Below, in pieces: positions 1-18,371 of a stretch of 43,378 bases of DNA. The notes under the pieces were generated by a model that was not told where the DNA came from, ran no database searches, and saw only the letters and a program-made list of their open reading frames with translations. Source of the stretch: a virus. How positions within the stretch are numbered: position 1 is the stretch's first letter; every line of letters starts with the position of its first letter. The stretch covers positions 1 to 43,378 of IMG/VR virus record IMGVR_UViG_3300009068_004104; one strand, given 5' to 3'. A program made the translations under genes and the position numbers.

Positions 1-88
1 AGCTCATGCATTCAGCACCGAGCCCTTTTTCCCCACAGAAACTTACAGTACATAATAACAACAACAAAAAAGAAAGACCACAAGTAAC

Positions 89-286
89 ATGACACAAGGA
101 ACAGTAAAATGGTTCAATGCCCAGAAGGGTTTTGGATTCATAGCCACAGAAGACAAGGATGTGTTCGTACACATATCAGCAGTGCAGGCAGCAGGCATGG
201 ACACTCTCACGGAGGGTGATGCAGTGATGTTTGACCTGGAGAACACAGCCAAGGGACCAGCCGCAGTCAATCTTGCAGTGCAGTAG
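89..286 (+). CDS. CspA-family cold-shock protein
   Basis: A 65-residue single cold-shock domain, the usual length for bacterial Csp proteins. It opens with [15 protein letters not shown], which holds the RNP1-type motif KGFGFI, and continues with the RNP2-type motif VFVHIS. The family binds single-stranded RNA and DNA and acts as an RNA chaperone or antiterminator in the cytoplasm. In a phage it could keep viral transcripts unfolded or modulate host transcription, which is inference. The C-terminus [10 protein letters not shown] is typical of the family. The start at ATG 89 is the only sensible one, and no strong Shine-Dalgarno is seen in front of it. The gene lies in the GC-rich segment at the left end of the window, transcribed toward the sulfotransferase-like gene. 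Confidence 0.95.
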
Positions 287-346
287 CACTCCCGTTGGGG
301 TCACGCCAGTGGCCCTGTAGAACACACACCACATAACTAGTACAGC

Positions 347-937
347 ATGTTCGTCATCACTACCACTCGTCGCGGATTCGTACACATAGCTCGCACGGGG
401 GGAACCTACGTGAGGCAGCACTGTGAATCATTGCCGGGCTATCATCGTCGCCGCCCCACGCACGGCAGCCAGCTGGCACCACACTGCCTGGGCAAGGGAC
501 AGCCAATTGCATGGTGCTCCATGCTGCGAGATCCCGTGGATCGTTTCATCAGCATGTGGCAGCTGTGCCAGGTGCGAGCACGCAAAGAAAACAATCAATA
601 TTTTTATCTACAGCGGGGGCAGTCAATAAAAACCAACACATTCACTGACTGGGACAGCTGGTGTGACTGGCATCATGACCATCCCACGCAGCCCAGCCGG
701 GGTGGCATTTGGTCATCCCAGAGCAGCCGAGTGACCGCCTCCACGCGACTATATCTATTCCCCCATGAGCTGGATCTCTGTGTGTCCTGGTTGGGTGGAG
801 TGGGCGACCATGTGCCCAGACAAGGCAGCGGCGTGTTCACACAGACAGTCACGCAGGCACAGCGAGCACAGATCGAGCAGCACTATGCCGCAGATGTGAC
901 ACTGTGGCAGGATCTCTGCCACACACGCAGGCACTGA
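347..937 (+). CDS. sulfotransferase-like protein
   Basis: A 196-residue protein that looks like a small sulfotransferase of the phage and bacterial carbohydrate type. Residues 13-20 (HIARTGGT) match the 5'-phosphosulfate-binding loop (HIPKTGGT in the family). Residues 60-69 (LRDPVDRFIS) match the 3'-phosphate-binding motif. These two motifs bind PAPS, so the likely reaction is transfer of sulfate to a hydroxyl or amine of a glycan or other acceptor. The acceptor cannot be read from the sequence. A second member of the same broad family lies at 21260-21832. The gene sits between the cold-shock gene and the AspH-like gene in GC-rich DNA. Codon use (many CTG, GCC and GTG codons) differs from most of the window. 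Confidence 0.72.
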   Translation: MFVITTTRRGFVHIARTGGTYVRQHCESLPGYHRRRPTHGSQLAPHCLGKGQPIAWCSMLRDPVDRFISMWQLCQVRARKENNQYFYLQRGQSIKTNTFTDWDSWCDWHHDHPTQPSRGGIWSSQSSRVTASTRLYLFPHELDLCVSWLGGVGDHVPRQGSGVFTQTVTQAQRAQIEQHYAADVTLWQDLCHTRRH

Positions 938-956
938 AACAACACATTACCAACGG

Positions 957-985
957 TTGCACAAAGAGGCATTTCACAGTATACT
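957..985 (+). promoter_or_regulatory. sigma70-like promoter, predicted start of transcription at the start codon
   Basis: TTGCAC (957-962), a 17-nt spacer and TATACT (980-985). The expected transcription start, about 7 nt after the -10 box, falls at 992, which is the ATG of the next gene. This would give a leaderless or nearly leaderless transcript. Confidence 0.6.
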
Positions 986-991
986 GCAGTG

Positions 992-1714
992 ATGCAGCTG
1001 AAGAAACTGTGGTTGAGATCTGAGATTAGAGTGGCCAATGAGCTCATGAGTCACGTGCCCCTGTTGCGGGCAGAATTCCTGGCTCGGCACACAGATTTCA
1101 TCGCGGGTGCATTCTCTCGCGGAGTGCCCATCGAATTGCCCACTCTGCCCGACCCATCCGCGCTGACCACTCGCATGGAGGCATGGAAGATGGACGGATT
1201 GCAGTATCGCTGGAGCGATGCCGGCATACTGAAAGAACGTTTCCGTGAGCCCAAGATTCGAGCTCGCTATCCCACCGCCTGCGCCCTGTTAGAGCGTTTT
1301 GGAGATCACTGTGGCTGTGCCGGTTATTCAGTGCTGGAACGACAGGCAGTGATCACTCGTCATACCGGCATAGAGAATCGTGACAACGAGTATCTGCGCA
1401 TACACGTGCCACTGATAGTGCCCCCTGGAGACATATTCTTTGAGGTAGAAGGCACCGAGATAGACTGGTCCGATCTGTGGGGATTTGACAATCAGCTGGT
1501 ACACTCGGCTCACAATCTCACGGATCATCGCCGACTGGTGTTCCTGATCGACCTGCGCCGTGACTTCCTGGGCCTGCCCGACCAGCCGCCATTTGACCCC
1601 GAGCGAGAGAAGAACATACCCCCGTTCACTCGAGGAGCTCTGCCACGTCAACTGCACGAGCATCAGCAACAACAGGTGCAACAGCGGCTACTTCGCACAG
1701 TGATCCTGGACTGA
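992..1714 (+). CDS. aspartyl/asparaginyl beta-hydroxylase-like dioxygenase
   Basis: A 240-residue protein with the core of the AspH family (Fe(II)/2-oxoglutarate dioxygenases). In order: a HTG motif near residue 124 (the H-x-G found after the metal region), LRIHVPL near 136-142, then the H-S-A-H-N-L stretch near 171-176 followed by DHRRLVFLIDL. The second metal histidine and the 2-oxoglutarate-binding arginine are expected in that last stretch. The family hydroxylates Asp or Asn side chains or small molecules. The phage substrate is unknown. A GTG at 989 directly precedes ATG 992. ATG is preferred because the promoter at 957-985 predicts transcription starting there. The gene belongs to the GC-rich block. 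A different putative dioxygenase is at 23566-24054. Confidence 0.8.
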   Translation: MQLKKLWLRSEIRVANELMSHVPLLRAEFLARHTDFIAGAFSRGVPIELPTLPDPSALTTRMEAWKMDGLQYRWSDAGILKERFREPKIRARYPTACALLERFGDHCGCAGYSVLERQAVITRHTGIENRDNEYLRIHVPLIVPPGDIFFEVEGTEIDWSDLWGFDNQLVHSAHNLTDHRRLVFLIDLRRDFLGLPDQPPFDPEREKNIPPFTRGALPRQLHEHQQQQVQQRLLRTVILD

Positions 1715-1733
1715 TTGTTTGCTTTACCAAAGG

Positions 1734-1761
1734 TTGACAAACTGGCACAGCATGCTACAAT
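1734..1761 (+). promoter_or_regulatory. strong sigma70-like promoter with extended -10
   Basis: TTGACA (1734-1739), a 16-nt spacer and TACAAT (1756-1761), with TGC directly before the -10 box (extended -10). The downstream gene has a clear AAAGGAG Shine-Dalgarno at 1774-1780 before ATG 1788. Confidence 0.75.
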
Positions 1762-1787
1762 ACACACACAAACAAAGGAGAACATAT

Positions 1788-1952
1788 ATGAAAAGTTTGT
1801 TGACTAAAAGAAACATCATCATTGCCGCAGTGGTAGTGGTAGTGATCGTGATCGGCTACAGCCTAGTGAAGAAGCCCGCAGCGGCTCCGGCACCAGCGGC
1901 CAAGCCAGCAATCACAGCACCGGTAACACCGGCTGCACCGGCCAAGAAGTAA
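1788..1952 (+). CDS. small membrane-anchored Ala/Pro-rich protein
   Basis: A 54-residue protein. A basic N-terminus (MKSLLTKRN) is followed by one strongly hydrophobic helix (about residues 9-25, rich in Ile and Val), then an Ala/Pro/Lys low-complexity tail built from PAAP-like repeats. The layout suggests an inner-membrane anchor with an extended periplasmic tail, but no family is recognised. The start at 1788 was chosen over an upstream in-frame start at 1719 for two reasons. AAAGGAG lies 7 nt before the ATG, and an extended -10 promoter ends at 1761, inside the longer reading frame. It is probably transcribed alone, because a stem-loop follows. Confidence 0.7.
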   Translation: MKSLLTKRNIIIAAVVVVVIVIGYSLVKKPAAAPAPAAKPAITAPVTPAAPAKK

Positions 1953-1968
1953 CAACACTTGACCCGAT

Positions 1969-1994
1969 CACAGGGTGGATTCGTTCACCCTGTG
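1969..1994 (+). terminator. stem-loop after the small membrane protein gene
   Basis: A perfect 9-bp inverted repeat, CACAGGGTG (1969-1977) with CACCCTGTG (1986-1994), and an 8-nt loop. It sits 16 nt after the stop codon. No T-run follows, so it may be a factor-dependent terminator or a 3'-end stabilising hairpin rather than a classical intrinsic terminator. Confidence 0.45.
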
Positions 1995-2113
1995 TGTCAC
2001 TGGCAACAGCATGTTTAGAATATTTCTTCCGCTGCTGTCCTAGTCTTTCCCACACGATCATTGATTTATAACTGGGTGTTTTATTTCACGGCATGCCCAG
2101 TAAATAATCTAGC

Positions 2114-2503
2114 ATGAGGCACAACAGATATTCCCAGAGCAAATTGATCACCCAGCCCGACACATGGTTCTGCCAACGCCGGAGGGTGTTCATGTATCAC
2201 TACCTATACCAGCCGCAGTTTGGGCCACCCAATCAATGGCAGGATCTCGCGGGCACGCACTGCCAGTATCGTGGCTGGCTGCACCTCAGCAACTGGCATC
2301 GCGGTGAGATCTGGACCTATCCCACACAGAAGCATCTCATGATGGTGCAGATGTTGGTCACCCGAGACATGCTGATCACAACGGCCGACTGGAAGCGCCT
2401 GAAAAAAGAGAGCCAGCAGAGGAACCGTCGATGGGAACAGGAGATACGTTCGCTGATGAAGAAACACGGCGAGACTTACACCTGGTGGGGTGAAGATCGA
2501 TAA
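2114..2503 (+). CDS. hypothetical protein
   Basis: A 129-residue protein that I do not recognise. It is rich in Trp, Tyr, Gln and His, with a basic N-terminus. The C-terminal third (DWKRLKKESQQRNRRWEQEI) is highly charged and probably helical. No signal peptide or membrane segment is evident. Codon use is GC-rich like genes 89-1952, and the gene marks the right edge of that compositional block: the sequence turns sharply AT-rich right after its stop. A second in-frame ATG at 2192 would give a protein of about 103 residues. The sequence does not decide between the two starts. Confidence 0.5.
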   Translation: MRHNRYSQSKLITQPDTWFCQRRRVFMYHYLYQPQFGPPNQWQDLAGTHCQYRGWLHLSNWHRGEIWTYPTQKHLMMVQMLVTRDMLITTADWKRLKKESQQRNRRWEQEIRSLMKKHGETYTWWGEDR

Positions 2504-2668: not shown

Positions 2669-2704
2669 ATGCCGGAATTAAAGATTTGCGATTATTTTAT
2701 ATGA
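2669..2704 (+). CDS. possible 11-codon upstream leader ORF
   Basis: ATG at 2669 opens an 11-residue frame whose TGA stop (2702-2704) overlaps the ATG (2701) of the next gene in an ATGA arrangement. This could couple translation of the following gene. It could equally be chance in AT-rich DNA, and no strong Shine-Dalgarno precedes it. Confidence 0.2.
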   Translation: MPELKICDYFI

Positions 2705-3297
2705 GTAACAGCAAACAAAACGATTATTGCATAGGTTTTTACCAACCATTATTAAATTGTTTCATAACAACAACAAAAAACATTTTAACAGCGAACAAGA
2801 TTCCTTTTTTGTTTTCTTCGCGAATGACTATTGTTTGCTGTGACATATTGTCTGCAAAAAATATAGATATTATCGGAAGTTCAACAGATTGGTCCGGGTG
2901 GACCTTTAATGCTGCAGAACAATTCCAATTTGCCGATCCTTTATATGAAAAGAAATTACAATTGTCTCAAATTTTTAACACGGACGAATTAATAAAAGCA
3001 AACTTAAACGATAAATCCATGACCCTATTACAAGAAACCAGGAAACTACTAGATTGCATAATAAAATGGACCGATTTTTTTAATTTGCTAGAAACTAACC
3101 AAGGAGCATTGTTCATTAAAGATCATTTCGAAATAGTCAGCATATACGACGACGAATTACAAAAGTGCGTGAAAGAATGCGAAAAAATCTTGTACCTCGA
3201 AAACGAGATTACCAAGATACACAATAAAATTTTTAAATTATTAAAAGACAATAAAAAAATTTTAAGAATATATGAAGAATATCGAAATAGCCTTTAA
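2701..3297 (+). CDS. hypothetical protein, first gene of the PP-loop/PRTase cassette
   Basis: A protein of about 198 residues that I do not recognise. The N-terminal half is mixed alpha/beta in character with several aromatic residues and cysteines (for example IVCCDIL and STDWSGWTF). The C-terminal half is strongly charged and likely helical, ending in a Lys/Glu-rich possible coiled coil. ATG 2701 is preferred over the in-frame TTG at 2686. The gene overlaps the PP-loop gene by 26 nt, so the two are probably translationally coupled and act together. It may be an accessory or substrate-binding partner of the PP-loop enzyme, which is inference only. Confidence 0.6.
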   Translation: MSNSKQNDYCIGFYQPLLNCFITTTKNILTANKIPFLFSSRMTIVCCDILSAKNIDIIGSSTDWSGWTFNAAEQFQFADPLYEKKLQLSQIFNTDELIKANLNDKSMTLLQETRKLLDCIIKWTDFFNLLETNQGALFIKDHFEIVSIYDDELQKCVKECEKILYLENEITKIHNKIFKLLKDNKKILRIYEEYRNSL

Positions 3298-4483
3298 TAC
3301 CGAGAGCTGGTTGTTGGAAAAGAATTATTTTAACAGATATGATCCAAAAATTTCTTGTGAACAATGGATCGAAGAAAATATTTTTAAGACTAGCAATTAT
3401 GATTGGAAAAGTTATATTGAATGCAGGAAAAAATTCATAATGAAAAATCATGGAGGATTTGTGGTCAGAGCAGGCAAAAACATAGGACCATGGGATAATA
3501 AAAAAATAATAGACATGTTTGATCTTCACATGCCAGTTAAAAATAAAAATTATAAAAAATCTTTTTCTGACGTCACAGACGAAAGATGCGCATCATTATA
3601 TAAATCTCACAAAAATAAACCGTGGTATGTTTTGTGGAGCGGAGGGACAGACAGCACAGTAATAGTATCTGCCATATTAAAGAACATACCAGTAGCCGAT
3701 AGAGAACACATTCATATTGCCTGCAATCCCGATTCGATATTTGATAATCCTGTTTTTTTCTTTAAATTTATAAAACCCAATTTTAAAATCATCGATAGCA
3801 AGTTATTCAGTGCAGATTATCGTGATCTTTTCGAAACAACAAAACCAAAAGATTCTATCATCATTGACGGGAACCTTAGCGATCAAATTTTTAGAACCAA
3901 AGAATCATATCAGATTATAAGACAGGGCATCAGTGACATCAACCCAAAAAAAAGCCCGGATGTCTTAATTAAATTTTATAAAAATCTATACAGCCTGTCC
4001 TCGGAGGCAGCCAGCTGGTGGTACGATTCTCTGCGGCAAAATATCGAATCTGTAGACCTTCCTATTTCAACTCTGTGTGATTGGTCTCTCTGGAGCTGGT
4101 TTAATTTTTATTGGGGAATGGTGAAATTAAGAACCTTTGAGATTTCAAATATGACTTATAAAAATTTTTTATCTAATTATTTTATATGGTATGATACTCT
4201 AGATTATCAACAATGGGCATTGTCGACCACCTCCGAAGAAAAAATTGGAAAAGACATCTATGAATACAAACGTCCAGCAAAAGATTATATTTTTCAATTG
4301 GATAAAAATATTTATTATTATTATTTTAAACAAAAAGGCTACAGTGATGTTTATAGAAAATATCAAGGAATCGGCGGTGCTATCGCAGCCATTGCAGAGG
4401 ACGGATCGATTCTTCGTTTAGACAAAGACATCGATCAAATATTAATGGCACTACCAAAACATCTTAATAGATACTATGTTTAA
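3272..4483 (+). CDS. PP-loop ATPase, asparagine-synthetase-C-like
   Basis: A 403-residue protein with a PP-loop signature at residues 119-130 (YVLWSGGTDSTV; core SGGTDS at 123-128). Enzymes with this fold adenylate a carboxylate, amide or nucleobase with ATP and release pyrophosphate. A later DGNLSDQIF stretch resembles the GDxGDE(I/L)F motif of asparagine synthetase C-domains. No N-terminal glutaminase domain is present: the first 115 residues are of another type. It could therefore be an amidotransferase-like or ligase enzyme using another nitrogen donor. It overlaps the gene before it (26 nt) and the phosphoribosyltransferase-like gene after it (8 nt), so the three form a tight cassette. 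The real substrate is unknown. Confidence 0.7.
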   Translation: MKNIEIAFNTESWLLEKNYFNRYDPKISCEQWIEENIFKTSNYDWKSYIECRKKFIMKNHGGFVVRAGKNIGPWDNKKIIDMFDLHMPVKNKNYKKSFSDVTDERCASLYKSHKNKPWYVLWSGGTDSTVIVSAILKNIPVADREHIHIACNPDSIFDNPVFFFKFIKPNFKIIDSKLFSADYRDLFETTKPKDSIIIDGNLSDQIFRTKESYQIIRQGISDINPKKSPDVLIKFYKNLYSLSSEAASWWYDSLRQNIESVDLPISTLCDWSLWSWFNFYWGMVKLRTFEISNMTYKNFLSNYFIWYDTLDYQQWALSTTSEEKIGKDIYEYKRPAKDYIFQLDKNIYYYYFKQKGYSDVYRKYQGIGGAIAAIAEDGSILRLDKDIDQILMALPKHLNRYYV

Positions 4484-5225
4484 GAATCTAGATAAACTTT
4501 TCAAATTAGCAAAATATGAAGATCAATACGTAACGGATAGAATCAAATGGTTATTAAAAAATCAAGTTTTAAAATTTCGAGATAATAGTACAACAAAGTG
4601 GGGAGATCCAATACCATTTGACATAAGAGCAGAAGGAGCAAGTTCTACTCTACATATGAACAGCCTAGGCGAACTATTGGCTGATAAGGTAATCTCTATT
4701 GAAAAGGAACAAGGGGTTCGTTTTGACTCGATGTTTTGCTCACTCTATTGCGGTATGTTCACTGGTTTCAGCACTGCTCTATGGCTAGATAAAAAGTATA
4801 ATCGACAAATTAATCTAGCGGTAGGCAGAAGAGACTTTCGGGTAAAACTTGAGGATAAAACAGATTCAGATTTTTTGTGCATTCAATGTAAAGCACGTGC
4901 CCCATATGAGAGTTTATTTTGGTCCAGCCATCCAAAAAAAGACAAAAACATGGTAGGAACATTAGAAGGTAATGTTCTCATACACGACGAGATGGTCAAT
5001 TCGGGGAACACCGTTAGAGAATTGGTAGATATTTGTCGCATGAAAAATGCTAAGCCAAAAGCAATAATGGTAATAGCTGATCGAATATTAGATCCATTAC
5101 CCAAGGGAGTTCATGAAAGAATGATTGATCAAATTCCATGTTATAGTATGATTACACATTATGAATTGATAGAATGGTGCAATAACAACCAAAAAATCTG
5201 TAAAGCATTAGATGATCCCACGTAA
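4476..5225 (+). CDS. type I phosphoribosyltransferase-like protein
   Basis: A 249-residue protein whose middle part fits the type I PRTase fold. Residues 167-179 (VLIHDEMVNSGNT) match the PRPP-binding loop (family pattern hydrophobic x4, D-D/E, x5, G-x-T). A preceding GRRDFR stretch near 117-122 is where orotate-type enzymes have their catalytic loop. The family couples PRPP to a base, or releases it. The long N-terminal helix-rich extension is not typical of pyrE or apt products. The start at ATG 4476 overlaps the PP-loop gene stop by 8 nt. Last gene of the cassette, with about 110 nt and a candidate promoter before tctC. A nucleobase-related reaction for the cassette is an inference. Confidence 0.65.
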   Translation: MFKNLDKLFKLAKYEDQYVTDRIKWLLKNQVLKFRDNSTTKWGDPIPFDIRAEGASSTLHMNSLGELLADKVISIEKEQGVRFDSMFCSLYCGMFTGFSTALWLDKKYNRQINLAVGRRDFRVKLEDKTDSDFLCIQCKARAPYESLFWSSHPKKDKNMVGTLEGNVLIHDEMVNSGNTVRELVDICRMKNAKPKAIMVIADRILDPLPKGVHERMIDQIPCYSMITHYELIEWCNNNQKICKALDDPT

Positions 5226-5339: not shown

Positions 5340-6329
5340 ATGAAATATAAAATAAAACAATTAATCATTATCATCTTTTTTGCATTCTTTTCTTCTCAGG
5401 CAATAGCATGGGAACCAAAAAAAGGCAGCACGATTGATGTGATTATACCTTTTCCTTCTGGAGCCGGCAACGAGATGATTTTCAGAGCAGTTGCAGGCAC
5501 TGTGGAAAATAATACCGGGGTCAAGTTCAACATAATATCAAAACCCGGAGCCGGTGGAGCTGTGGGTACCGAGCTGTTTAAATCTCAACCAGCCGACGGT
5601 CAACACATTGCCGTGCTTTCTATCGGTGGGTTGGCTGCCATGGACAAGACTTCAGAAGACTATCAAAAGAGAAAACCCTACACGGTTGACAGTTTTACTC
5701 ATGTTCTACAATTGGGATATTCTCCGGCTGTGATTATCGCTCACCCGTCCGACCCCGTGAACAACATGCAACAACTCATAAATGTTCTATTAACCGAAAG
5801 AACCACACTGGGACACTCAGGTGGTGGAGGACGTCTCGCATTTGAGGTTCTAGCATCTCGTATTAATCTTGATGAAAAAAATAAATTTTTTACTCGAGTG
5901 GAATACAAAGGACCAGCACAAACCGTACCAGATATTATAGGAAAACAGGTGAGATTTGGAGTACTACCGTTGGCTGTGGCCAGATCTTTCCATCAAGCAG
6001 GACAAATTAAAATAATTGGTTCGTCTAGTGCTAATAAGATTGCGGACCTACCCCAGGTGTCGACCTTTTCTTCTGTAGTGCCCGGAATTGACGTTCCTAT
6101 TGCATTTGGACTTACATTGCCAGCTAACGCAAAACCAGAAGTAGTAGAGTGGTACAGAAAAGAATTCTCCAAAGCTCTACAAGCGGCAGAGGTGAAAGCT
6201 AACTTTGAAAAACAATTTTTCTTTTTAGACGAAAAATTGTTAGATCCAAAAACACAATTAGCCTATATCAAAAAGTTCGAAAAAGATTCCGAACTAGCAG
6301 TGATATCGGTTATAAAATCGAGCCAATAA
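5340..6329 (+). CDS. tctC: TctC: periplasmic substrate-binding protein of a tripartite tricarboxylate transporter
   Basis: A 329-residue protein with a clear signal peptide (residues 1-23, cleavage after AIA) followed by the Bug/TctC signature. VIIPFPSGAGNEMIFR near residues 35-50 and NIISKPGAGGAVGTELF near 63-79 form the two ligand-binding loops of the family. The protein captures a small organic acid or related solute in the periplasm and hands it to TctAB. Length is normal. It heads the set tctC-tctB-tctA (gap 19 nt to tctB) with its own AAAAAGGA ribosome-binding site and candidate promoter. Ligands of Bug proteins vary widely (citrate, dicarboxylates, amino acids, aromatics), so the substrate cannot be named. 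A transporter of this type in a phage is unusual. Confidence 0.93.
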   Translation: MKYKIKQLIIIIFFAFFSSQAIAWEPKKGSTIDVIIPFPSGAGNEMIFRAVAGTVENNTGVKFNIISKPGAGGAVGTELFKSQPADGQHIAVLSIGGLAAMDKTSEDYQKRKPYTVDSFTHVLQLGYSPAVIIAHPSDPVNNMQQLINVLLTERTTLGHSGGGGRLAFEVLASRINLDEKNKFFTRVEYKGPAQTVPDIIGKQVRFGVLPLAVARSFHQAGQIKIIGSSSANKIADLPQVSTFSSVVPGIDVPIAFGLTLPANAKPEVVEWYRKEFSKALQAAEVKANFEKQFFFLDEKLLDPKTQLAYIKKFEKDSELAVISVIKSSQ

Positions 6330-6348
6330 AAGAACTGCTTTTTGTAAA

Positions 6349-6795
6349 ATGACTAACAATCGGATTGCTGGGATATTTTTATCAATAACCGGCAGTCTGG
6401 TTGTAATTTACTCTTTTTATAATTTTCGAATTGGCACTCTACAAAAGATTGGGCCCGGGTGGTATCCTATGATCGTGGGAGCTTTTCTGCTTTGTTTAGG
6501 AATTTTATTGGGCATTTCAAAAAATAAAAAAAATTACACATTCAGCACATTTCCAAACACTAAAATTAAAAGTTTTTTTTTAATTGTGCTCACAATGCCT
6601 TTGTTTGCTTTTACTGTAAATTATTTTGGATTAATTTTATCTATTTTTCTTTTTGTCTTTATAAATTCTTTCTTATGGTCAGGACAAAAAATAAAATCAA
6701 GAATAACATTATCTTTATTTTTTACTCTGATTACTGTTATTTTATTTTCTCTTATTTTAAACTTGAATATAAATCTATTACCAATTATATTTTAA
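6349..6795 (+). CDS. tctB: TctB: small membrane subunit of the tripartite tricarboxylate transporter
   Basis: A 148-residue hydrophobic protein with about four transmembrane helices (roughly residues 8-26, 40-55, 72-92 and 98-145, the last region probably two helices). Length and layout match TctB, the poorly conserved small membrane subunit. FRIGTLQKIGPGWYP near residues 25-40 is a recognisable family stretch (G-P-G-W/F-x-P). It lies between tctC and tctA with 1 nt before tctA, confirming the assignment by context. Confidence 0.9.
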   Translation: MTNNRIAGIFLSITGSLVVIYSFYNFRIGTLQKIGPGWYPMIVGAFLLCLGILLGISKNKKNYTFSTFPNTKIKSFFLIVLTMPLFAFTVNYFGLILSIFLFVFINSFLWSGQKIKSRITLSLFFTLITVILFSLILNLNINLLPIIF

Positions 6796-6796
6796 T

Positions 6797-8272
6797 ATGG
6801 ACTTATTGAATTCTTTATCTATCGGTTTCGATACGGCCTTATCGATTAAAAATTTATTCTGGTGCTTTGCAGGATCTTTTTTGGGCACATTAGTAGGAGT
6901 TCTCCCCGGAATAGGACCAATTACTGCTCTGAGTTTACTGTTGCCCGCGACATATCATATGGAAGTAACCACTGCGATGATATTTTTAGCCAGTGTATAT
7001 TATGGTACACAATACGGAGGTAGCACTGCTTCTATATTAATGAACATACCCGGCACCCCCGGAAATGCGGTAACCTGCATCGACGGATATCCTATGTGTA
7101 AGCAAGGTCGCGCCGGCATAGCACTATCAGTCTCGGCCATATCTTCGGTCATAGGAGGGTTTTTTGGTATATTATTAATAATTTTTATTTCGCCTTATCT
7201 GGCAAACCTTGCATTCCAATTTGGTCCAGCGGAATATTTTTCTTTGATGCTTCTTGGTTTGATCGCGGTGTGCTGCCTCTCTATCAACAAAGATATAGTT
7301 CGTAATATTGCTATGGTGATGTTAGGAGTTTTGATCGGCATCATAGGTATGGATCTCAACACATCAACTCCGAGATTTACATTTGGTTTTTTAGAACTTG
7401 CGGATGGAATTAATATGATTCTAGTAGCGATGGGTCTAATAGGATTGCCTGAAATAATTCAACGTGTTACAAATATTAACTCAAATGTTAAAATTCAAGA
7501 GCTTTCGAGAATTTATCCAAACAAAAAAGAGTACAAAGAATTCCTTCCATCGGCGTTACGTGGAAGCGCTGTGGGAGGTTTTTTTGGACCGTTGCCAGGA
7601 ACAGGTCCGGCGGTGGCCGGGTTTATGAGTTATCTCTTAGAAAAAGCAATAGGTCGTAAAAATAAAAAATTTGGGAAAGGAGAAATACGAGGAGTTGCCG
7701 GTCCGGAAGCAGCAAACAATTCTGGAGCCCAAACAGAATTAGTGCCTACTATGTTGTTGGGATTGCCAGGAGATACTGCCATGCCTCTGATATTAGCCGC
7801 CCTGGTTTTACACGGAATTACTCCCGGCCCTAATCTAATCACAACACATCCAACTTTGTATTGGGGATTGATAGCTAGTTTTTTTATTGGTAATATAATG
7901 CTCCTCTTGTTGAATTTGCCTCTGATCAAACTGTGGATTAAAATTTTAAAAATACCATATCAATATCTTTTTCCAGCGATACTCATCTTCATCATGATGG
8001 GAGCGTACAGTGTGAATAATAGTACATTTGATATCTTTGTGGTTGCGATATTTGGAGTGTTAGGATACTTTTTAAAAGTATTAAATTTTGATACTACTCC
8101 AGTCTTGTTAGGATTGATCATTGGACCATATATGGAAGAATATCTTCGTAGAGCATTACAAATTACCGGGGGAGATTTTTCTTTATTTTTTATTAAACCA
8201 ATATCATTGAGTCTGCTTATTGCGTCTTTAATCATAATTATTTTTACAATAGTAAAAAGAAAAAGGCAATGA
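6797..8272 (+). CDS. tctA: TctA: large membrane subunit of the tripartite tricarboxylate transporter
   Basis: A 491-residue protein with about eleven or twelve membrane segments, the usual TctA size. It holds the two internal-repeat glycine-rich motifs of the family: GVLPGIGPITALSLLLP near residues 34-50 and GPLPGTGPAVAGF near 263-275. The stretch LGLPGDTAMPLILAALVLHGI (about 320-340) is also characteristic. TctA forms the ion-coupled permease that imports the substrate delivered by TctC. No frameshift or lost motif is visible, so the system looks intact and functional. Its stop overlaps the next start in an ATGA arrangement, tying it to the epimerase gene. Confidence 0.95.
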   Translation: MDLLNSLSIGFDTALSIKNLFWCFAGSFLGTLVGVLPGIGPITALSLLLPATYHMEVTTAMIFLASVYYGTQYGGSTASILMNIPGTPGNAVTCIDGYPMCKQGRAGIALSVSAISSVIGGFFGILLIIFISPYLANLAFQFGPAEYFSLMLLGLIAVCCLSINKDIVRNIAMVMLGVLIGIIGMDLNTSTPRFTFGFLELADGINMILVAMGLIGLPEIIQRVTNINSNVKIQELSRIYPNKKEYKEFLPSALRGSAVGGFFGPLPGTGPAVAGFMSYLLEKAIGRKNKKFGKGEIRGVAGPEAANNSGAQTELVPTMLLGLPGDTAMPLILAALVLHGITPGPNLITTHPTLYWGLIASFFIGNIMLLLLNLPLIKLWIKILKIPYQYLFPAILIFIMMGAYSVNNSTFDIFVVAIFGVLGYFLKVLNFDTTPVLLGLIIGPYMEEYLRRALQITGGDFSLFFIKPISLSLLIASLIIIIFTIVKRKRQ

Positions 8273-9243
8273 AAAAAATATTGGTTTGTGGAGCTGGTGG
8301 ATTTATCGGAACACACCTAGTGACCAGTTTAAAAAAATTAGGACACTATGTCATTGGTGCAGATATTAAAAAACCAGAATATAGTACCACCGATGCAGAC
8401 GAATTCCATCTATTAGATTTACGTTCACAAGAATCTGTGAGCAAACTAATCACAACCGACGTCTATGAAATATACCAATTGGCCGCCGATATGGGAGGTG
8501 CGGGATATATCAACACAGGAGACAATGACGCAGAGGTAATGCACAACTCTTTATTAATCAATCTTAACGTAGCACAAGAAATGGTGAATAAAAACGTTAA
8601 ACGTATTCTATACACCAGCAGTGCTTGTGTGTATCCTGAATACAATCAATTGGACCCCAATAATCCTCTATGCAGTGAAGACAGTGTGTATCCTGCAAAA
8701 CCAGACAGCGAGTACGGTTGGGAAAAATTATTCAGCGAGCGACTCTATACAACATTTGCTAGAAATCACGGAATTCGAGCAAGGATAGCAAGATTACACA
8801 ATGTGTTTGGACCACTAGGTTCTTGGAACAATGGCAAAGAAAAAGCCCCTGCCGCTCTATGCAGGAAGGTTGCAGAGAGCAACGGAATCGTAGAAGTATG
8901 GGGACCAGGCACACAAACAAGAAGTTTCTTATTCATAGATGAATGCATAGAAGGCATACATAGAATAATGGCCAGCGAATATAACAAACCACTGAACCTA
9001 GGCAGTGAAAGATTAATAAGCATCAACGGTCTTGCGAGTTTAATAGCCAACCGAGCTAGAAAAAATATAGAAATAAAAAATATAGAAGGACCAGTTGGCG
9101 TTATGGGAAGATGCAGCGACAACAATCTGATTAAAAAAGCGATGGGATGGAGCCCAAACGAAGATCTTGAAAAAGGCATAGATATCACATACAAATGGAT
9201 AGCAGAACAAATAATCAAAGGAAACAAAGATGCATGCAACTAG
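8269..9243 (+). CDS. GDP-mannose 3,5-epimerase-like SDR enzyme
   Basis: A 324-residue extended short-chain dehydrogenase. Residues 8-14 (GAGGFIG) are the NAD-binding glycine loop and Y149-x3-K153 (YGWEK) the catalytic pair. Several stretches look specific to GDP-mannose 3,5-epimerase rather than generic epimerases: QLAADMGGAG, SSACVYPE, the GSWNNGKEKAPAALCRK region and TQTRSFLFIDECIEG. That enzyme makes GDP-L-galactose and GDP-L-gulose, precursors for surface glycans. The gene overlaps tctA (ATGA) and the following methyltransferase (14 nt), so it is co-expressed with the transporter, although the two have no obvious metabolic link. A related NDP-sugar epimerase remains possible. Confidence 0.85.
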   Translation: MKKILVCGAGGFIGTHLVTSLKKLGHYVIGADIKKPEYSTTDADEFHLLDLRSQESVSKLITTDVYEIYQLAADMGGAGYINTGDNDAEVMHNSLLINLNVAQEMVNKNVKRILYTSSACVYPEYNQLDPNNPLCSEDSVYPAKPDSEYGWEKLFSERLYTTFARNHGIRARIARLHNVFGPLGSWNNGKEKAPAALCRKVAESNGIVEVWGPGTQTRSFLFIDECIEGIHRIMASEYNKPLNLGSERLISINGLASLIANRARKNIEIKNIEGPVGVMGRCSDNNLIKKAMGWSPNEDLEKGIDITYKWIAEQIIKGNKDACN

Positions 9244-9742
9244 TATAGAGAATATGCAACGCATGATTTATGAAAATAAAAATAAGTTGCCCAGAGACAA
9301 AGTATTACAAGTTATAGAATTGGGTTCCTACACAGAGACAGGACATGACAGCTACAGAAATCTTTTCAAAAATATAAAAATAGAATATATAGGAGTAGAC
9401 ATGCGAGCAGGACCAAATGTGGACCTAGTGATGACAGATCCTTATGTCATACCACTATCGGATAATAGTCAAGATCTTGTGATATCAGGACAGACCCTAG
9501 AGCACGTAGAGTGGTTTTGGGAAACAATGCGAGAACTTACCAGGGTACTGCGCCCTGGGGGATTAATGTTTATGATAGTGCCCATGAAGGGTGGCGTGCA
9601 TAGACATCCTGTGGATTGTTGGAGGTTTTATCCAGATAGCTGGGCAGCTCTAGCACGTTGGGCTAATTTAGAATTATTAGAGACACACATAGATACACGC
9701 AGTCAATGGCACGATCATTGTGCTGTGCTTAAAAAAAATTAA
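9230..9742 (+). CDS. class I SAM-dependent methyltransferase
   Basis: A 170-residue protein with a small-molecule methyltransferase core: VIELGSY (motif I, near residues 28-34), IGVDMRAGPNVD (motif II), QDLVISGQTLEHVEWF (motif IV/V region, near 84-99) and LRPGGLMFMIVP (post-motif region). It resembles the Methyltransf_11 type often found in sugar-nucleotide and glycan clusters, and probably methylates a sugar or lipid-linked intermediate made with the epimerase. The start at 9230 overlaps the epimerase gene. An internal ATG at 9254 is possible. The gene ends convergent with, and 4 nt overlapping, the next minus-strand gene. Confidence 0.82.
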   Translation: MHATSIENMQRMIYENKNKLPRDKVLQVIELGSYTETGHDSYRNLFKNIKIEYIGVDMRAGPNVDLVMTDPYVIPLSDNSQDLVISGQTLEHVEWFWETMRELTRVLRPGGLMFMIVPMKGGVHRHPVDCWRFYPDSWAALARWANLELLETHIDTRSQWHDHCAVLKKN

Positions 9743-10332
9743 ATTTCTTCGAAGGTTATTAAAGGTAATTTATTCCAATTATTTTTATAAAAATCCCAAG
9801 TGCCATCACAGGAGTGAGAACGAGGGGAAGTATTTGTCTCTTTAGAAATTATTCCGCAACCAAAATCAGAACAAACTAAACGAAAAGTAATGTCGTTTCT
9901 CGACACAAGGTCAAACGAAACTCTCCACACATCTCCATTCCATTCCGATGTGGTTTTCTTCCTCCTTGTGGTGGCCGCCGCTTCTCTAAAAGGTAGTAAA
10001 TCGTGTATAATAATAAATCCATGATCGTTCAGTACCTTAAGGCTGTTATTAATATCTTTAACAATCTGCTCATAATGATGCAGCCCATCCACAAATATAA
10101 TATCAAATTTATCATTATACCTAGAAAAATATTCGTCACTGGTCATTCTTAGAGTGCCTCCACGACGAGGATCCACACCAACTTTTTTAAAAATATTAAT
10201 ATGATCGAAACATTCATTATTGTTGCAACCAATTTCCAAATAAGAAACAGCATTAATACGTTTAGCCAGCGTATTAATAACATCTATCCTACTGTGTTTA
10301 CCATATGGTATGGGCAAGTGCTCTAAGATCAT
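9739..10332 (-). CDS. class I SAM-dependent methyltransferase-like protein
   Basis: A 197-residue protein with YLEIGCNNNECF near residues 30-41 as the SAM-binding glycine loop. It continues with FDIIFVDGLHHYEQIVKDI near 75-93, typical of the Methyltransf_24 type, and GFIIIHDLLP as a later core strand. The C-terminal part (DGTWDFYKNNWN) may contact the acceptor. It is divergent from the SGNH-like gene at 10373, with only 40 bp between them, and that gap carries a T4-late-like motif for each direction. Substrate unknown, though the surroundings (glycosyltransferases, epimerase) suggest a carbohydrate. Confidence 0.75.
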   Translation of the reverse strand: MILEHLPIPYGKHSRIDVINTLAKRINAVSYLEIGCNNNECFDHINIFKKVGVDPRRGGTLRMTSDEYFSRYNDKFDIIFVDGLHHYEQIVKDINNSLKVLNDHGFIIIHDLLPFREAAATTRRKKTTSEWNGDVWRVSFDLVSRNDITFRLVCSDFGCGIISKETNTSPRSHSCDGTWDFYKNNWNKLPLITFEEI

Positions 10333-12678: not shown

Positions 12679-13275
12679 ATGCCACTAATACCAGTAGTAA
12701 TAGAACAAACATCTAAAGGTGAGCGCAGTTACGACATATTCAGTCGACTGTTAAAAGATAGAATCATTGTGCTGGAAGGACCAATCGAAGAGCACTCCGC
12801 TTCTGTGATCTGTGCTCAACTGTTATTTTGTGAATCACAAGCACCCGAGAGAGACATAACCATCTACATTAATTCGCCCGGTGGGCTAGTCACAGCAGGC
12901 ATGGCCATCTACGATACTATGCAGTATATCAAATGTGACGTACAAACCATCGTTATGGGACAAGCATGCTCAATGGGATCATTGTTAGCATCAGCAGGAA
13001 CCAAAGGCAAGAGATTGATACTGCCACACGCTCGACACATGATACACCAACCACTAGGCGGAGCATCAGGTCAAGCCACAGATGTGCAAATTCAAGCAAA
13101 CGAATTACTTCGTTGGAAAGACGAGCTAACTCGAGTTTATGAAAAACATACCGGACAAACTTTAGAAAAACTACGAGCCGACATGGAGAGAGACAACTTT
13201 ATGACTGCAGAACAAGCAGTAGCATATGGATTAGCCGACAAAGTTGTCACTAGCAGAGAAACGGATAATAAATAG
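12679..13275 (+). CDS. clpP: ATP-dependent Clp protease proteolytic subunit
   Basis: A 198-residue protein, full length for ClpP. The catalytic serine is in GQACSMGS near residue 98 and the catalytic histidine in RHMIHQP near residue 123. The family stretches [16 protein letters not shown] and [19 protein letters not shown] are present. ClpP forms a tetradecameric peptidase barrel that needs a ClpA/X/C unfoldase. None is in the window, so it probably uses the host partner or replaces the host subunit. It heads a promoter-driven operon that continues with radical SAM, heme oxygenase and bilin reductase genes. Phage clpP genes are known, and roles in virion maturation or redirecting host proteolysis are inference. 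Confidence 0.96.
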
Positions 13276-13282
13276 GCATTAA

Positions 13283-14605
13283 ATGCCTTTACCTAATAAA
13301 AAAATATTTTGTAATACCCCATGGTATGAATTACATATCTATTGGGATGGAGGTTTGGGAATTTGCTGCCAAGAATATCATCGCTTGTATAACACAGAAC
13401 AAAAAGAAAAATATAATATTTCTAACATGTCCATAGCAGAGTGGTTTAATAGTAAACCTGTTAAGAGAATGAGGATGGATATATGGAACGATAAAAAACT
13501 TTCATTATGTAATAGATGTATGCAAGACGAAGCGGTAGGCGTAACAAGCCGCCGACATAAAAGTAACCAAAAAAGTGTAATATTCACAAAATCAGCATTT
13601 GAAGATAGTATAAGACAAAGTCCACATTACGATAATTTTTTATACAGCAAAAATAATCAAGGAGAAACACAAACGCTGCCTATGGATCTACATGTAGATC
13701 TTGGAAATTTTTGTAATTTGGCCTGCAAAATGTGCAACTCGCAGGCTAGCAGTAAGATTGCTGCTCAAAATGTAAAGTGGGGAAATGAAGAAGATAAAAA
13801 ATATGTAGGATCTGACTGGACACAAAACAAAGAAGTGTGGGACAAATTTTTACAAGAATTATTAAAAATGAAATTACAAAATGTACATTTCATGGGAGGA
13901 GAAACAATACTAACAAAAAGATTTCACGATTTTTTAAATTTTATGATAGAACATAAAAGATTTGATCTTAATTTTAGTTTTGTTACAAACGGCACAACAT
14001 TTGATTTAGAATTAATTAAAAAATTAAAACTTTTTCAACGTGTTGGAATAGAAGTTAGCATAGAAACAATTACACAACACAACGGATATGTTAGACAAGG
14101 AACAGATACAAAAGAAGTATTGGCAAACATAGAAAAATATAGAGAACATTGTGACAACGAGAGAATTTCAGTAACTATAAGACCAGCCCCGAGTGCTTTG
14201 ACTATTGGAAATTATAACACCTTAATAGAATATTGTTTAGAACAAAAACTAACAATAAAATCAAACCCAGTTTATAGGCCAACTTTTTTAAATATTTCAG
14301 TATTACCTATAGATATAAAGAAAGAATATTTAAAAAAATATTATAATCTATTAAAAAAGTATGATTTAGAATCACTAGATATTGTATCAGATTTTAATGA
14401 GAGTGATCCTCAGCAATATAAAAAAATAATTAAAATGGCTATTAATCAAGCAATTGGTTTATTAAATTCCCCTACTCCTAATAACCATACCGAAGAGTTA
14501 ATTAAAATGGTAGAACATTGCAAACGCTGGGATAAAGTATATGGGTATAATGCCACAGACCTTTTTCCAGAATTAAAAGATATATTTGTTAAAAATGGAT
14601 ATTAA
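13283..14605 (+). CDS. radical SAM protein with N-terminal SPASM/twitch-like cysteines
   Basis: A 440-residue protein. The radical SAM cluster motif is CNLACKMC (Cx3Cx2C; C144, C148, C151), which holds the 4Fe-4S cluster that cleaves S-adenosylmethionine. HFMGGETIL follows as the GGE SAM-binding motif. Ahead of it (FCNTPWYELHIYWDG, then GICCQEY, then CNRCMQDE, about residues 9-78) is a cysteine pattern like the auxiliary-cluster SPASM/twitch domain. That domain normally sits C-terminal, so the order is permuted here. Three relatives with the same order lie at 20242, 21825 and 25591. The substrate is unknown: peptide or sugar modification are the family's usual roles. It follows clpP by 7 nt and overlaps the next gene. 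Confidence 0.82.
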   Translation: MPLPNKKIFCNTPWYELHIYWDGGLGICCQEYHRLYNTEQKEKYNISNMSIAEWFNSKPVKRMRMDIWNDKKLSLCNRCMQDEAVGVTSRRHKSNQKSVIFTKSAFEDSIRQSPHYDNFLYSKNNQGETQTLPMDLHVDLGNFCNLACKMCNSQASSKIAAQNVKWGNEEDKKYVGSDWTQNKEVWDKFLQELLKMKLQNVHFMGGETILTKRFHDFLNFMIEHKRFDLNFSFVTNGTTFDLELIKKLKLFQRVGIEVSIETITQHNGYVRQGTDTKEVLANIEKYREHCDNERISVTIRPAPSALTIGNYNTLIEYCLEQKLTIKSNPVYRPTFLNISVLPIDIKKEYLKKYYNLLKKYDLESLDIVSDFNESDPQQYKKIIKMAINQAIGLLNSPTPNNHTEELIKMVEHCKRWDKVYGYNATDLFPELKDIFVKNGY

Positions 14606-15068
14606 AAAATATAGAACAGAAATAAAATTACATGTTACGCCGATCTGGCACAAAGAACCACCAATATGTGTAATACGATTTTCTAAAGATATTTTTTTTA
14701 AGGAAGAGATAAAAGAAAGTAAAGTTTATTCTTATGAAGAATATCTATCAGCTGGAAACTACGATATAATAGTAGAATTTTTAAATAAAAAAAACTCCGA
14801 TACCGTGGATGAGAAAGACAAGGCCGTAAAGATAGATAAAATTATTTTTAACAATATTGAGAGCGAAAAATTTGTTTGGCAAGGAATATATCAACCTAAT
14901 TATCCAGAACCGTGGGCAACTCAACAAAAAAAATTAGGTAAAGAATTAAATTCTGTTCTTACTCCAATAACATATCTAGGATGGAATGGACAATGGAGAT
15001 TAACCTATTCTACGCCTATTTTTACATGGATACATAAAATAAAAAATCACGGATGGATTTATGAATAA
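14595..15068 (+). CDS. hypothetical protein between radical SAM and heme oxygenase genes
   Basis: A 157-residue protein that I do not recognise. The pattern of alternating hydrophobic strands (IKLHVTPIWHKEPPICVIRFS, YDIIVEFLNKKN, KIDKIIFNNI) suggests a beta-sandwich. It ends with an aromatic-rich segment (YLGWNGQWRLTYSTPIFTWIHKIKNHGW) reminiscent of carbohydrate-binding folds. ATG 14595 is chosen over the in-frame TTG 14586. It overlaps the stop of the radical SAM gene and the start of the heme oxygenase gene (8 nt), so it is part of the same translation-coupled operon. Confidence 0.55.
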   Translation: MDIKKYRTEIKLHVTPIWHKEPPICVIRFSKDIFFKEEIKESKVYSYEEYLSAGNYDIIVEFLNKKNSDTVDEKDKAVKIDKIIFNNIESEKFVWQGIYQPNYPEPWATQQKKLGKELNSVLTPITYLGWNGQWRLTYSTPIFTWIHKIKNHGWIYE

Positions 15069-15648
15069 TATAAACATAAAAGAAGCAACCAAAGAGCAGC
15101 ATCGCCGAGCCGAGCAACAAGAGTTTGTAAAGACGTTGATGTCCGGAGAAATACATCCAAAATTATATGCCACGTTCCTCTACAATCAATCACACTGTTA
15201 TGGTGCTCTAGAAAAATGGGCAGGATATCAAGGATTATTAGATCGCTTGCCGGGCATAGCAAGAGCAGAAAAATTAGCCAACGATTGCCAAGGTCTTTGG
15301 GTGCGTATTACTCCCCAACCAGAAATAACAGACAGCACAAAGAGATACATTGAACACATTGATAATATTAGAAGAGAACCGGCAAAATTATTTGCTCATG
15401 TATATGTAAGATATCTAGGGGACCTATACGGAGGACAGATGATAAAAACAAAAACACCCGGCGCTAATACCTGCCTGGAGTTTGATACTGCCATAGAATT
15501 AATACAAACGATCAGAGAAACAATCAACAGTTATATGTCAACAGATACCGACGCTGTAATCGCTGAAGCAAAGATTTGTTTTGGGTATGCCACGGAACTA
15601 TTCAAGGAGATGCATGATTTGGGAAAAACTTATACAATGCAAAGATAA
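15061..15648 (+). CDS. heme oxygenase
   Basis: A 195-residue biliverdin-forming heme oxygenase. The proximal heme ligand is most likely His14 in TKEQHRRAE. The distal helix signature VRYLGDLYGGQMI (about residues 115-128) is the hallmark of the HO-1 family. The reaction opens heme to biliverdin IX-alpha, CO and Fe2+ using reductant and O2. Length is slightly below bacterial and cyanobacterial HO1, and no membrane anchor is present. It overlaps the bilin reductase gene, so its biliverdin is probably passed on directly. Cyanophages carry ho1, but no photosynthesis gene is seen here. Virus-borne heme oxygenase plus PcyX-type reductase pairs have been described from marine metagenomes, and this looks like such a pair. 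Confidence 0.95.
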   Translation: MNNINIKEATKEQHRRAEQQEFVKTLMSGEIHPKLYATFLYNQSHCYGALEKWAGYQGLLDRLPGIARAEKLANDCQGLWVRITPQPEITDSTKRYIEHIDNIRREPAKLFAHVYVRYLGDLYGGQMIKTKTPGANTCLEFDTAIELIQTIRETINSYMSTDTDAVIAEAKICFGYATELFKEMHDLGKTYTMQR

Positions 15649-17944: not shown

Positions 17945-18313
17945 CTACCAACCCAATATCAATTGTCGTATCTCAGGATCTAGGCTCTCAGGACTCCATT
18001 GCGGGAACATGGTAATCCTTACCATGCATTTTTTAATGTCCGGTATCGATTCTACAGCACGTTGTATGTCTACCGGTATAATATCAGCCGCCGGGCAGAA
18101 TGCCGAAGTAAGGGTGTGTAGAATATAACATTCTAAATCTTTGGTCACTTTGATATCATATACCAGTCCAAGATCGTAAATATTGATAGGCAACTCGGGA
18201 TCATACACAGTCCTCAATTTGTCTTTGATAGTTTGAATGTATTGTAATCGAATCTCTTCGTCGTCCTTTATATCATCCAGGGTTTGCGAAACATCTTTGG
18301 AAATATCATTCAT
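17945..18313 (-). CDS. DUF59/MIP18-family Fe-S cluster assembly-type protein
   Basis: A 122-residue protein of the MIP18/SufT-like (DUF59) family. The signature YDPELPINIYDLGLVYDIKV is at residues 37-56. LTSAFCPAAD near 68-77 contains the conserved cysteine (C73). Members assist maturation of Fe-S proteins in the cytoplasm. ATG 18313 fits the family length and the promoter at 18319-18347. A longer frame from 18427 would add an unrelated hydrophobic stretch and run through that promoter. With radical SAM enzymes (4Fe-4S) and iron-related genes in this window, a role in loading clusters is plausible. Confidence 0.88.
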   Translation of the reverse strand: MNDISKDVSQTLDDIKDDEEIRLQYIQTIKDKLRTVYDPELPINIYDLGLVYDIKVTKDLECYILHTLTSAFCPAADIIPVDIQRAVESIPDIKKCMVRITMFPQWSPESLDPEIRQLILGW

Positions 18314-18318
18314 ACTAG

Positions 18319-18347
18319 AGTATAACACGACTTTGACAGAGTCACAA
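18319..18347 (-). promoter_or_regulatory. sigma70-like promoter of the DUF59 gene, leaderless
   Basis: On the minus strand TTGTGA (18347-18342), a 17-nt spacer and TATACT (18324-18319), preceded by TGT (extended -10). The ATG at 18313 is 5 nt after the -10 box, so the predicted transcript starts at about the start codon. Confidence 0.6.
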
Positions 18348-18360
18348 CCTATGTTACAAT
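18333..18360 (+). promoter_or_regulatory. sigma70-like promoter of gene 18372, overlapping a divergent promoter
   Basis: TTGACA (18333-18338), 16-nt spacer, TACAAT (18355-18360) with TGT before it. It overlaps the minus-strand promoter 18319-18347, so the two probably compete. The predicted leader before ATG 18372 is about 5 nt. Confidence 0.7.
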
Positions 18361-18371
18361 AAAAGAAAGAA

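What the first reader, a model, noticed from the sequence alone, without database searches (positions are those of the whole stretch)
2701..5225. Three-gene cassette: unknown protein, PP-loop ATPase, phosphoribosyltransferase-like protein
The genes overlap by 26 and 8 nt, which implies one coupled system. A PP-loop adenylating enzyme without a glutaminase domain, next to a PRPP-binding protein and an unknown partner, does not match any pathway I know. It could build a modified base, nucleotide signal or nucleotide-linked metabolite.
Basis: inference. Interest (0 to 1): 0.72.

Follow-up and report, generated by a model that had tools for sequence, protein, structure and literature searches.

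The report
Phage amide-ligase gene beside carboxylate transporter
A freshwater-type phage carries an asparagine-synthetase-like enzyme that lacks the usual ammonia-supplying half, with a small partner gene; in many unrelated phages the same enzyme sits beside proteins that bind small organic acids, so phages may use it to chemically modify an organic acid, but the product is unknown.

Summary
In detail: three + strand ORFs (2701-3297, 3272-4483, 4476-5225) overlap by exactly 26 and 8 nt. ORF2 is a glutaminase-free synthetase with the AsnB fold (AlphaFold pLDDT 83; AsnB/beta-lactam-synthetase-type structures at Z 12-14). It belongs to a family that is large in phages, also occurs in bacteria, and has no Pfam or NCBIfam model. 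ORF3 is an orotate-phosphoribosyltransferase-like protein.

The reading as a three-gene system is only partly supported. ORF1 is a diverged member of a small-partner family encoded next to ORF2-like genes in other phages. No phosphoribosyltransferase gene lies beside ORF2 relatives in any locus examined.

The recurrent neighbours are carboxylate-binding proteins. DctP or TctC genes lie in 33 of 82 loci (10 of 24 lineages), against 2 of 50 control phage records. The window shows this too: TctC-TctB-TctA follow the trio directly. A related phage carries DctP + partners + two ORF2-like genes between the same flanking genes, so this is an exchangeable cassette.

Best reading: an ATP-dependent acyl-adenylating (amide-forming) ligase acting on a small carboxylate, with ORF3 a lineage-specific extra. 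The substrate is unknown; ORF2 has Asn at the AsnB Glu348 position. New variant of a known kind.

The parts
2701..3297 (+). ORF1, 198 aa: diverged member of the small-partner family encoded just upstream of ORF2-like genes in other phages; predicted small alpha/beta N-terminus plus helical C-terminus (low confidence)
   Evidence: profile match; model pLDDT 64, pTM 0.52; no Pfam/PHROG match
3272..4483 (+). ORF2, 403 aa: glutaminase-free AsnB-fold PP-loop ligase; SGGTDST 123-129, D204, K333, K353, K355 conserved; N201 at the AsnB Glu348-equivalent position
4476..5225 (+). ORF3, 249 aa: orotate-phosphoribosyltransferase-like; PRPP loop VLIHDEMVNSGNT with acidic pair, longer flexible loop; not conserved beside ORF2 relatives
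5340..6329 (+). TctC, tripartite tricarboxylate transporter receptor with signal-like N-terminus
   Evidence: Pfam TctC 1.2e-21; N-terminal hydropathy
6349..6795 (+). TctB, small membrane subunit
   Evidence: Pfam TctB 3e-14
6797..8272 (+). TctA, large membrane subunit
   Evidence: Pfam TctA 9.6e-151
8269..9243 (+). NAD-dependent sugar epimerase/GDP-fucose-synthase-like, overlaps TctA by 4 nt; may be co-transcribed, link to the module uncertain
2114..2503 (+). left flank gene of the exchangeable cassette (by-eye homologue at L199:1997-2377)
12679..13275 (+). right flank gene: ClpP, at the same side of the cassette in L199, L085 and L193

Best explanation
ORF2 is an ATP-dependent carboxylate-adenylating ligase of the AsnB fold without a glutaminase half. 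It would use an ATP pyrophosphatase (PP-loop) reaction to turn a small carboxylate into an acyl-AMP and pass it to an amine, ammonia or another nucleophile. ORF1 is its dedicated small partner, of unknown role. The carboxylate is probably the ligand of the carboxylate-binding protein encoded with it: here the periplasmic receptor TctC with its transporter TctBA, in other phages a leaderless, presumably cytoplasmic DctP-like protein. ORF3 is a lineage-specific addition that might attach a phosphoribosyl group to the substrate or product, or act independently. The unit is a metabolic cargo cassette swapped at a fixed site in the phage genome. Shown: fold, catalytic motif, ORF1 partner homology, association with carboxylate-binding proteins, cassette exchange. 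Inferred: amide formation, identity of substrate and nucleophile, role of ORF1 and ORF3.
For: Fold: TsnB9, beta-lactam synthetase, AsnB and carbapenam synthetase at Z 11.3-14.0, above GMP synthetase, NadE and LarE at 6.8-8.7. Conserved: SGG.DST, K333 and K353 invariant in 46 proteins, D204 in 45; profile alignment to phage AsnB over 321 columns puts D204 and these lysines on the AsnB ones. ORF1 partner match far above controls. DctP/TctC in 33 of 82 loci, 31 within 1.5 kb, 10 of 24 lineages at 50% clustering; record-level DctP 13/50 and TctC 5/50 against 2/50 and 0/50 in T4-like controls. TctA with TctC near the gene in L082, L077 and L048 as in the window. Same flanks, different cassette in L199.
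Against: The AsnB Glu348-equivalent position is E in only half of the family and N201 in ORF2, so ordinary amidation by ammonia may not occur. Many family members (about 60% of loci) have no DctP/TctC nearby. The strongest DctP signal comes from one marine lineage. In bacteria the usual neighbour is a cupin, not a binding protein. The ORF1 homology is remote (13-20% identity). No close relative of ORF2 or ORF3 was found, so conservation of this exact arrangement cannot be tested.
Confidence: 0.45

Rival explanations
1. The three genes are one dedicated pathway: ORF2 activates a substrate and ORF3 adds phosphoribose, giving a modified base or nucleotide-linked metabolite.
For: Tight overlaps and one strand; ORF3 retains an OPRT-type PRPP loop with acidic pair.
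Against: No phosphoribosyltransferase beside ORF2 relatives in 50 records, no ORF3 match near ORF2 relatives in the fetched loci, no ORF3 relative in 13 close-kin records.
Confidence: 0.15
2. The ligase modifies a surface polymer or tail adhesin: an amide or cross-link on a tail-fibre protein or on a sugar acid of host glycan.
For: ORF2-like genes follow tail-fibre or baseplate genes in several unrelated phages: L067 and the L017/L050 group, Xanthomonas Mu-like prophage L205, cultured Pseudomonas phage Cygsa01 after an S74 tail fibre. In the window an epimerase and methyltransferases follow TctA.
Against: Tail-fibre borders are general cargo insertion sites, and no enrichment against a control was measured. 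The window cassette is not next to structural genes, and this does not explain DctP/TctC.
Confidence: 0.18
3. Cassette genes are unrelated cargo that share an insertion hotspot; the co-occurrence of ORF2-like and DctP/TctC genes has no functional meaning.
For: The region between the 2114-like gene and ClpP is clearly an exchange site, and these phages carry much host-derived cargo.
Against: The pairing recurs in about 10 lineages, with two different binding-protein families, in both orientations and in different genomic places, and alternates PP-loop/TctC/PP-loop/TctC in L067. T4-like controls rarely carry such genes.
Confidence: 0.15
4. ORF2 is not a working ligase: with Asn at the catalytic Glu position it adenylates only, or serves as a binding or regulatory protein.
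For: N201 in ORF2 and E/D/N/T/C/Q at that position in the family.
Against: The PP-loop and both lysines are invariant or nearly so in all 46 proteins. Beta-lactam-forming relatives also lack Glu there (from general knowledge, not tested here).
Confidence: 0.1

Closest known systems
Asparagine synthetase B and relatives (AsnB 1ct9, beta-lactam synthetase 1jgt, carbapenam synthetase 1q15, TsnB9 7ylz)
   Same: Synthetase fold over residues ~78-363, SGGxDS PP-loop, Gly-x-x-x-Asp motif, two essential-type lysines
   Different: No N-terminal glutaminase domain; about 10% identity; different residue at the Glu348 position; not recognised by the Pfam Asn_synthase or TIGR01536 models
Uncultured Caudovirales phage proteins A0A6J5LXJ3, A0A6J5LYZ2 and others in BFVD, named 'uncharacterized' or 'asparagine synthase'
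   Same: Same fold over the full length (TM 0.80 and 0.72), 20-28% identity: members of the same family
   Different: Functionally undescribed; no partner or binding-protein association recorded for them
Orotate phosphoribosyltransferase PyrE (1oro, 1lh0) and NF002620 OPRT-like proteins
   Same: ORF3 aligns over both lobes; PRPP loop with acidic pair
   Different: Longer flexible loop, scores far below the PyrE and OPRT-like cut-offs
Tripartite tricarboxylate transporter TctCBA; TRAP receptor DctP
   Same: Window genes 5340-8272 match TctC, TctB, TctA; relatives elsewhere match TctC or DctP
   Different: Phage-borne; the DctP-type proteins beside the ligase lack a signal-like N-terminus in 22 of 22 cases, whereas 12 of 12 TctC-type ones have it
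Bacterial cupin (+127-131 aa protein) + PP-loop gene cassette (Aquimarina, Tenacibaculum, Fulvivirga, planctomycetes and others)
   Same: Same PP-loop family, short overlapping operon with small partners
   Different: Partner is a cupin (26 of 45 loci within 1 kb), no DctP/TctC within the cassette

Membership tests
Asparagine synthetase (AsnB/PF00733, TIGR01536) | AsnB-type synthetase (PP-loop) fold | tested here: met
   Z 11.3-14.0 to the AsnB/beta-lactam synthetase group, next group at or below 8.7
Asparagine synthetase (AsnB/PF00733, TIGR01536) | SGGxDS pyrophosphatase motif and conserved lysines | tested here: met
   S123-G-G-x-D-S-T129, K333 and K353 invariant in 46 proteins
Asparagine synthetase (AsnB/PF00733, TIGR01536) | N-terminal Cys-dependent glutaminase domain | tested here: not met
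   403-aa protein; only ~115 residues precede the PP-loop; structure matches start at residue ~78 for most AsnB-type entries
Asparagine synthetase (AsnB/PF00733, TIGR01536) | Catalytic Glu in the G-E-x-x-D motif | tested here: not met
   N201 in ORF2; E in 23 of 46 family members
Asparagine synthetase (AsnB/PF00733, TIGR01536) | Score above the curated model cut-off | tested here: not met
   No PF00733 or TIGR01536 match for ORF2; the window's own AsnB at 42182-43375 matches TIGR01536 at 3.1e-40, though below its cut-off, as it is cut by the contig end
Orotate phosphoribosyltransferase (PyrE) | PRPP-binding loop with two acidic residues | tested here: met
   VLIHDEMVNSGNT aligned to VMLVDDVITAGTA of 1oro
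Orotate phosphoribosyltransferase (PyrE) | Basic catalytic flexible-loop residues | tested here: inconclusive
   RRDFR seems to align with the R-K-x-x-K loop, followed by a ~35-residue insertion
Orotate phosphoribosyltransferase (PyrE) | Score above TIGR00336 or NF002620 cut-off | tested here: not met
   15.1 of 106.8 bits and 30.4 of 115 bits
ORF1 partner family of phage PP-loop ligases | Profile similarity above shuffles and unrelated proteins, and position just upstream of the ligase gene | tested here: met
   Score 40.8 over residues 11-181 vs maxima 21.2 and 19.6; overlaps ORF2
Tripartite tricarboxylate transporter | TctC, TctB and TctA subunits encoded together | tested here: met
   Pfam TctC, TctB, TctA all over cut-off at 5340-8272
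QueC/MnmA/DndC-type PP-loop enzymes | Family-level match over cut-off | tested here: not met
   Only weak PP-loop-region matches (QueC-like PHROG 0.013, DndC 0.0014)

The most novel reading that the evidence does not exclude
A widespread, undescribed phage metabolic module in which a glutaminase-free AsnB-fold ligase works on a carboxylate captured by its own binding protein, either a periplasmic TctC with its transporter or a leaderless cytoplasmic DctP acting as a substrate carrier. This would give an acylated or amidated small molecule made only in infected cells.
Probability: 0.3. Interest if true: 0.75.

Novelty: new variant of a known kind. Interest (0 to 1): 0.52.

Why it matters
If right, phages from many environments share a hitherto unnamed ligase family coupled to carboxylate capture. 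That would be a kind of auxiliary metabolism beyond the known nutrient-uptake and nucleotide genes, with a testable substrate class. The leaderless DctP proteins would be receptors redeployed inside the cell. It would also clear up the 'asparagine synthase' or 'mnmA' annotations in phage genomes and link them to a cupin-ligase cassette in bacteria.

Tried and rejected
Single-sequence searches found no usable relative: ORF1-ORF3 in IMG/VR, ORF2 in the phage and plasmid records; ORF3 in the phage records gave one weak partial hit (27% identity over 43%, E 9e-3). The exact WSGGTDSTV pattern gave only unrelated structural proteins among the readable hits. A PRTase-motif pattern gave nine loci, none adding evidence. 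A first attempt to equate all ~200-aa upstream genes failed: groups g1 (Xanthomonas-type) and g3 do not match ORF1 (scores 12.8 and 16.9); only the g2/g4/g5 partners together do. Direct hhalign of A1 with the window's AsnB aligned only the PP-loop; a phage AsnB profile was needed. The ORF1 model had no PDB match, as expected at pLDDT 64, so its fold stays open. Paper searches for phage asparagine synthetase, TctC or DctP with these terms found only passing mentions of tctA in SUP05 viruses (PMC4164917, PMC6359870); absence from this library is weak evidence. Promoter and terminator scan was at shuffle level. In the VIA list, families other than PP-loop enzymes do not appear; this excludes nothing.

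Full report
Observation. The three ORFs are present at the stated coordinates on the + strand, with overlaps of 26 nt (3272-3297) and 8 nt (4476-4483). The window is an IMG/VR virus record of 43,378 bases. Its right half carries a phage replication module (DnaB-like helicase, primase, UvsW-like helicase; by eye from the translations), and UvsW relatives up to 97% identical occur in many IMG/VR contigs.

ORF2. No Pfam family matched over its cut-off. A search of IMG/VR for [LIVMF]WSGG[IVM]DST[IVM] gave 88 loci. Most encode 310-440 aa proteins to which ORF2 is clearly related (best blastp E 3e-33). In a 46-sequence alignment SGG.DST, K333 and K353 are invariant, and R66, W122, E158, G200, D204, Q313, W315, Y349 and K355 nearly so. 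The AlphaFold model made with this alignment has pLDDT 83 and pTM 0.87. Its best solved relatives are the AsnB-type synthetases TsnB9, beta-lactam synthetase, AsnB and carbapenam synthetase at Z 11.3-14.0, standing above other PP-loop enzymes at 8.7 and below. Foldseek against PDB gives AsnB first at E 7.7e-4, and in BFVD uncharacterised or 'asparagine synthase' phage proteins first. The N-terminal glutaminase is absent. Profile alignment to phage AsnB proteins over 321 columns places G200-N201..D204 on the AsnB G-[ED]-x-x-D motif and K333 and K353/K355 on the AsnB lysines. The position equivalent to AsnB Glu348 is E in 23, D in 9 and N, T, C or others in the rest; ORF2 has N. From general knowledge of this superfamily that residue helps set the reaction, so ORF2 should not be called an asparagine synthetase.

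ORF1. Most ORF2-like genes have a same-strand ORF directly upstream (62 of 82 loci within 60 nt), often about 200 aa and overlapping. These partners fall in several groups. ORF1 aligns with a combined profile of 11 partners (from L077, L082, L080, L101, L085, L199, L049, L100, L074) over residues 11-181 with score 40.8; 60 shuffles reach at most 21.2 and 20 other window proteins at most 19.6. Two other upstream groups do not match. I take ORF1 as a diverged member of this partner family. Its structure model is poor (pLDDT 64) and has no PDB match.

ORF3. It matches solved orotate phosphoribosyltransferases in two stretches (1oro E 6.5e-6) and NF002620 (2.7e-7), all below curated cut-offs, with a longer flexible loop. 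PF00156 rings in 3 of 50 records with ORF2 relatives, and the stretches around those matches do not overlap the ORF2 loci. ORF3 has no relative in 13 records of close kin (many are fragments). So ORF3 is not a conserved member of the unit.

Neighbours. The commonest neighbour of ORF2-like genes is a DctP-family protein (23 of 89 loci), with two further groups of TctC-type proteins. With profiles of both, 33 of 82 loci carry one, 31 of them within 1.5 kb. At 50% clustering of the ligases, 10 of 24 lineages do. Records with ORF2 relatives: TctC 5/50 (one of them below the family cut-off), DctP 13/50. Records of T4-like phages chosen by UvsW: 0/50 and 2/50. TctA also occurs with TctC in L082 and L048. 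L067 alternates ligase, TctC, ligase, TctC. The window has the complete set TctC-TctB-TctA directly after the trio (Pfam 1.2e-21, 3e-14, 9.6e-151). All 12 full-length TctC-type proteins in the loci, and the window's TctC, have a signal-like hydrophobic N-terminus (Kyte-Doolittle 12-residue maximum at least 2.06); all 22 full-length DctP-type proteins lack one (at most 1.0), so they are probably cytoplasmic.

Cassette exchange. In L199, the first 17 kb of a 75-kb contig, the order is CspA, Asp-hydroxylase-like gene, a homologue of window 2114-2503, then DctP, ORF1-like, two ORF2-like genes, another ORF1-like and split DctP genes, then ClpP, radical SAM and the FTR1-like permease. The window has the same flanks (CspA 89, hydroxylase 989, 2114; ClpP 12679, radical SAM 13283, FTR1 18791) with ORF1-ORF2-ORF3-TctCBA and further genes between. 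L085 is similar. L193, from a contig whose UvsW is 97% identical, has another ORF2-like gene next to ClpP. Gene content at this site is therefore exchangeable, and the shared theme is ligase + ORF1-like partner + carboxylate-binding protein.

Wider distribution. Forty-five bacterial genome loci encode family members. In 26 of them a cupin lies within 1 kb, often with a 127-131 aa protein in an overlapping cassette; the same cupin type is beside the ligase in 10 phage loci. In Xanthomonas L205 the ligase is in a Mu-like prophage after baseplate and tail-fibre genes. In cultured Pseudomonas phage Cygsa01 two genes annotated mnmA, at least one of them a clear member, follow an S74 tail fibre.

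Mechanism. The best reading is an acyl-adenylating ligase acting on a small carboxylate that the encoded binding protein captures. Product, nucleophile and the role of ORF1 are inferred. ORF3 may decorate the product in this lineage or act alone. Caveats: family members were collected with one motif pattern, so the sample is biased (ORF2 itself has T, not I/V/M, in that motif and would not be found by it). One marine lineage contributes many DctP cases. The control set is T4-like phages only. No close relative of the exact trio exists in the collections searched.

Noticed in passing
window 1-2503: GC drops from 0.52-0.55 to 0.28 at about 2500. Relatives L085 and L199 also have a GC-richer arm with CspA at this side, so it is probably native rather than an assembly join.
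   Followed up: partly
window 26970-28028: A Gram-negative porin gene (Porin_4, 7.3e-36) in a phage genome; L193 has a similar gene near its left end.
   Followed up: no
window 13283-14605, 20242-21291, 21825-22967, 25591-26661: Four radical SAM proteins, SPASM or twitch type, several kept in order in relative L193; role unknown.
   Followed up: no
window 15061-15648 and 18791-19384: Phage-borne heme oxygenase (4.2e-24) and FTR1-type iron permease (2e-13), a possible iron-acquisition pair, plus a FeS-assembly P protein at 17945-18427.
   Followed up: no
L199:9603-11138: DctP split into one N-lobe gene and two C-lobe genes in a phage, next to ligase and ORF1-like genes; the same arrangement is in L085.
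   Followed up: no
L206:6884-8930, L211, L216, L224 and other bacterial loci: A cupin + 127-131 aa protein + PP-loop ligase cassette in Bacteroidota; the cupin and ligase also in planctomycetes and others. No NCBIfam name for the ligase.
   Followed up: partly
L203 (PP179332.1) 7721-9870: Two genes annotated as mnmA in cultured Pseudomonas phage Cygsa01 look like members of the ligase family, probably misannotated.
   Followed up: partly
L248:7830-8132: A fragment of an ORF2-like gene at the end of a Polynucleobacter MAG contig; host hint or assembly chimera.
   Followed up: partly
L030:719-5394 and L078:8193-11314: Tandem arrays of three to four diverged ligase paralogues in one phage.
   Followed up: no
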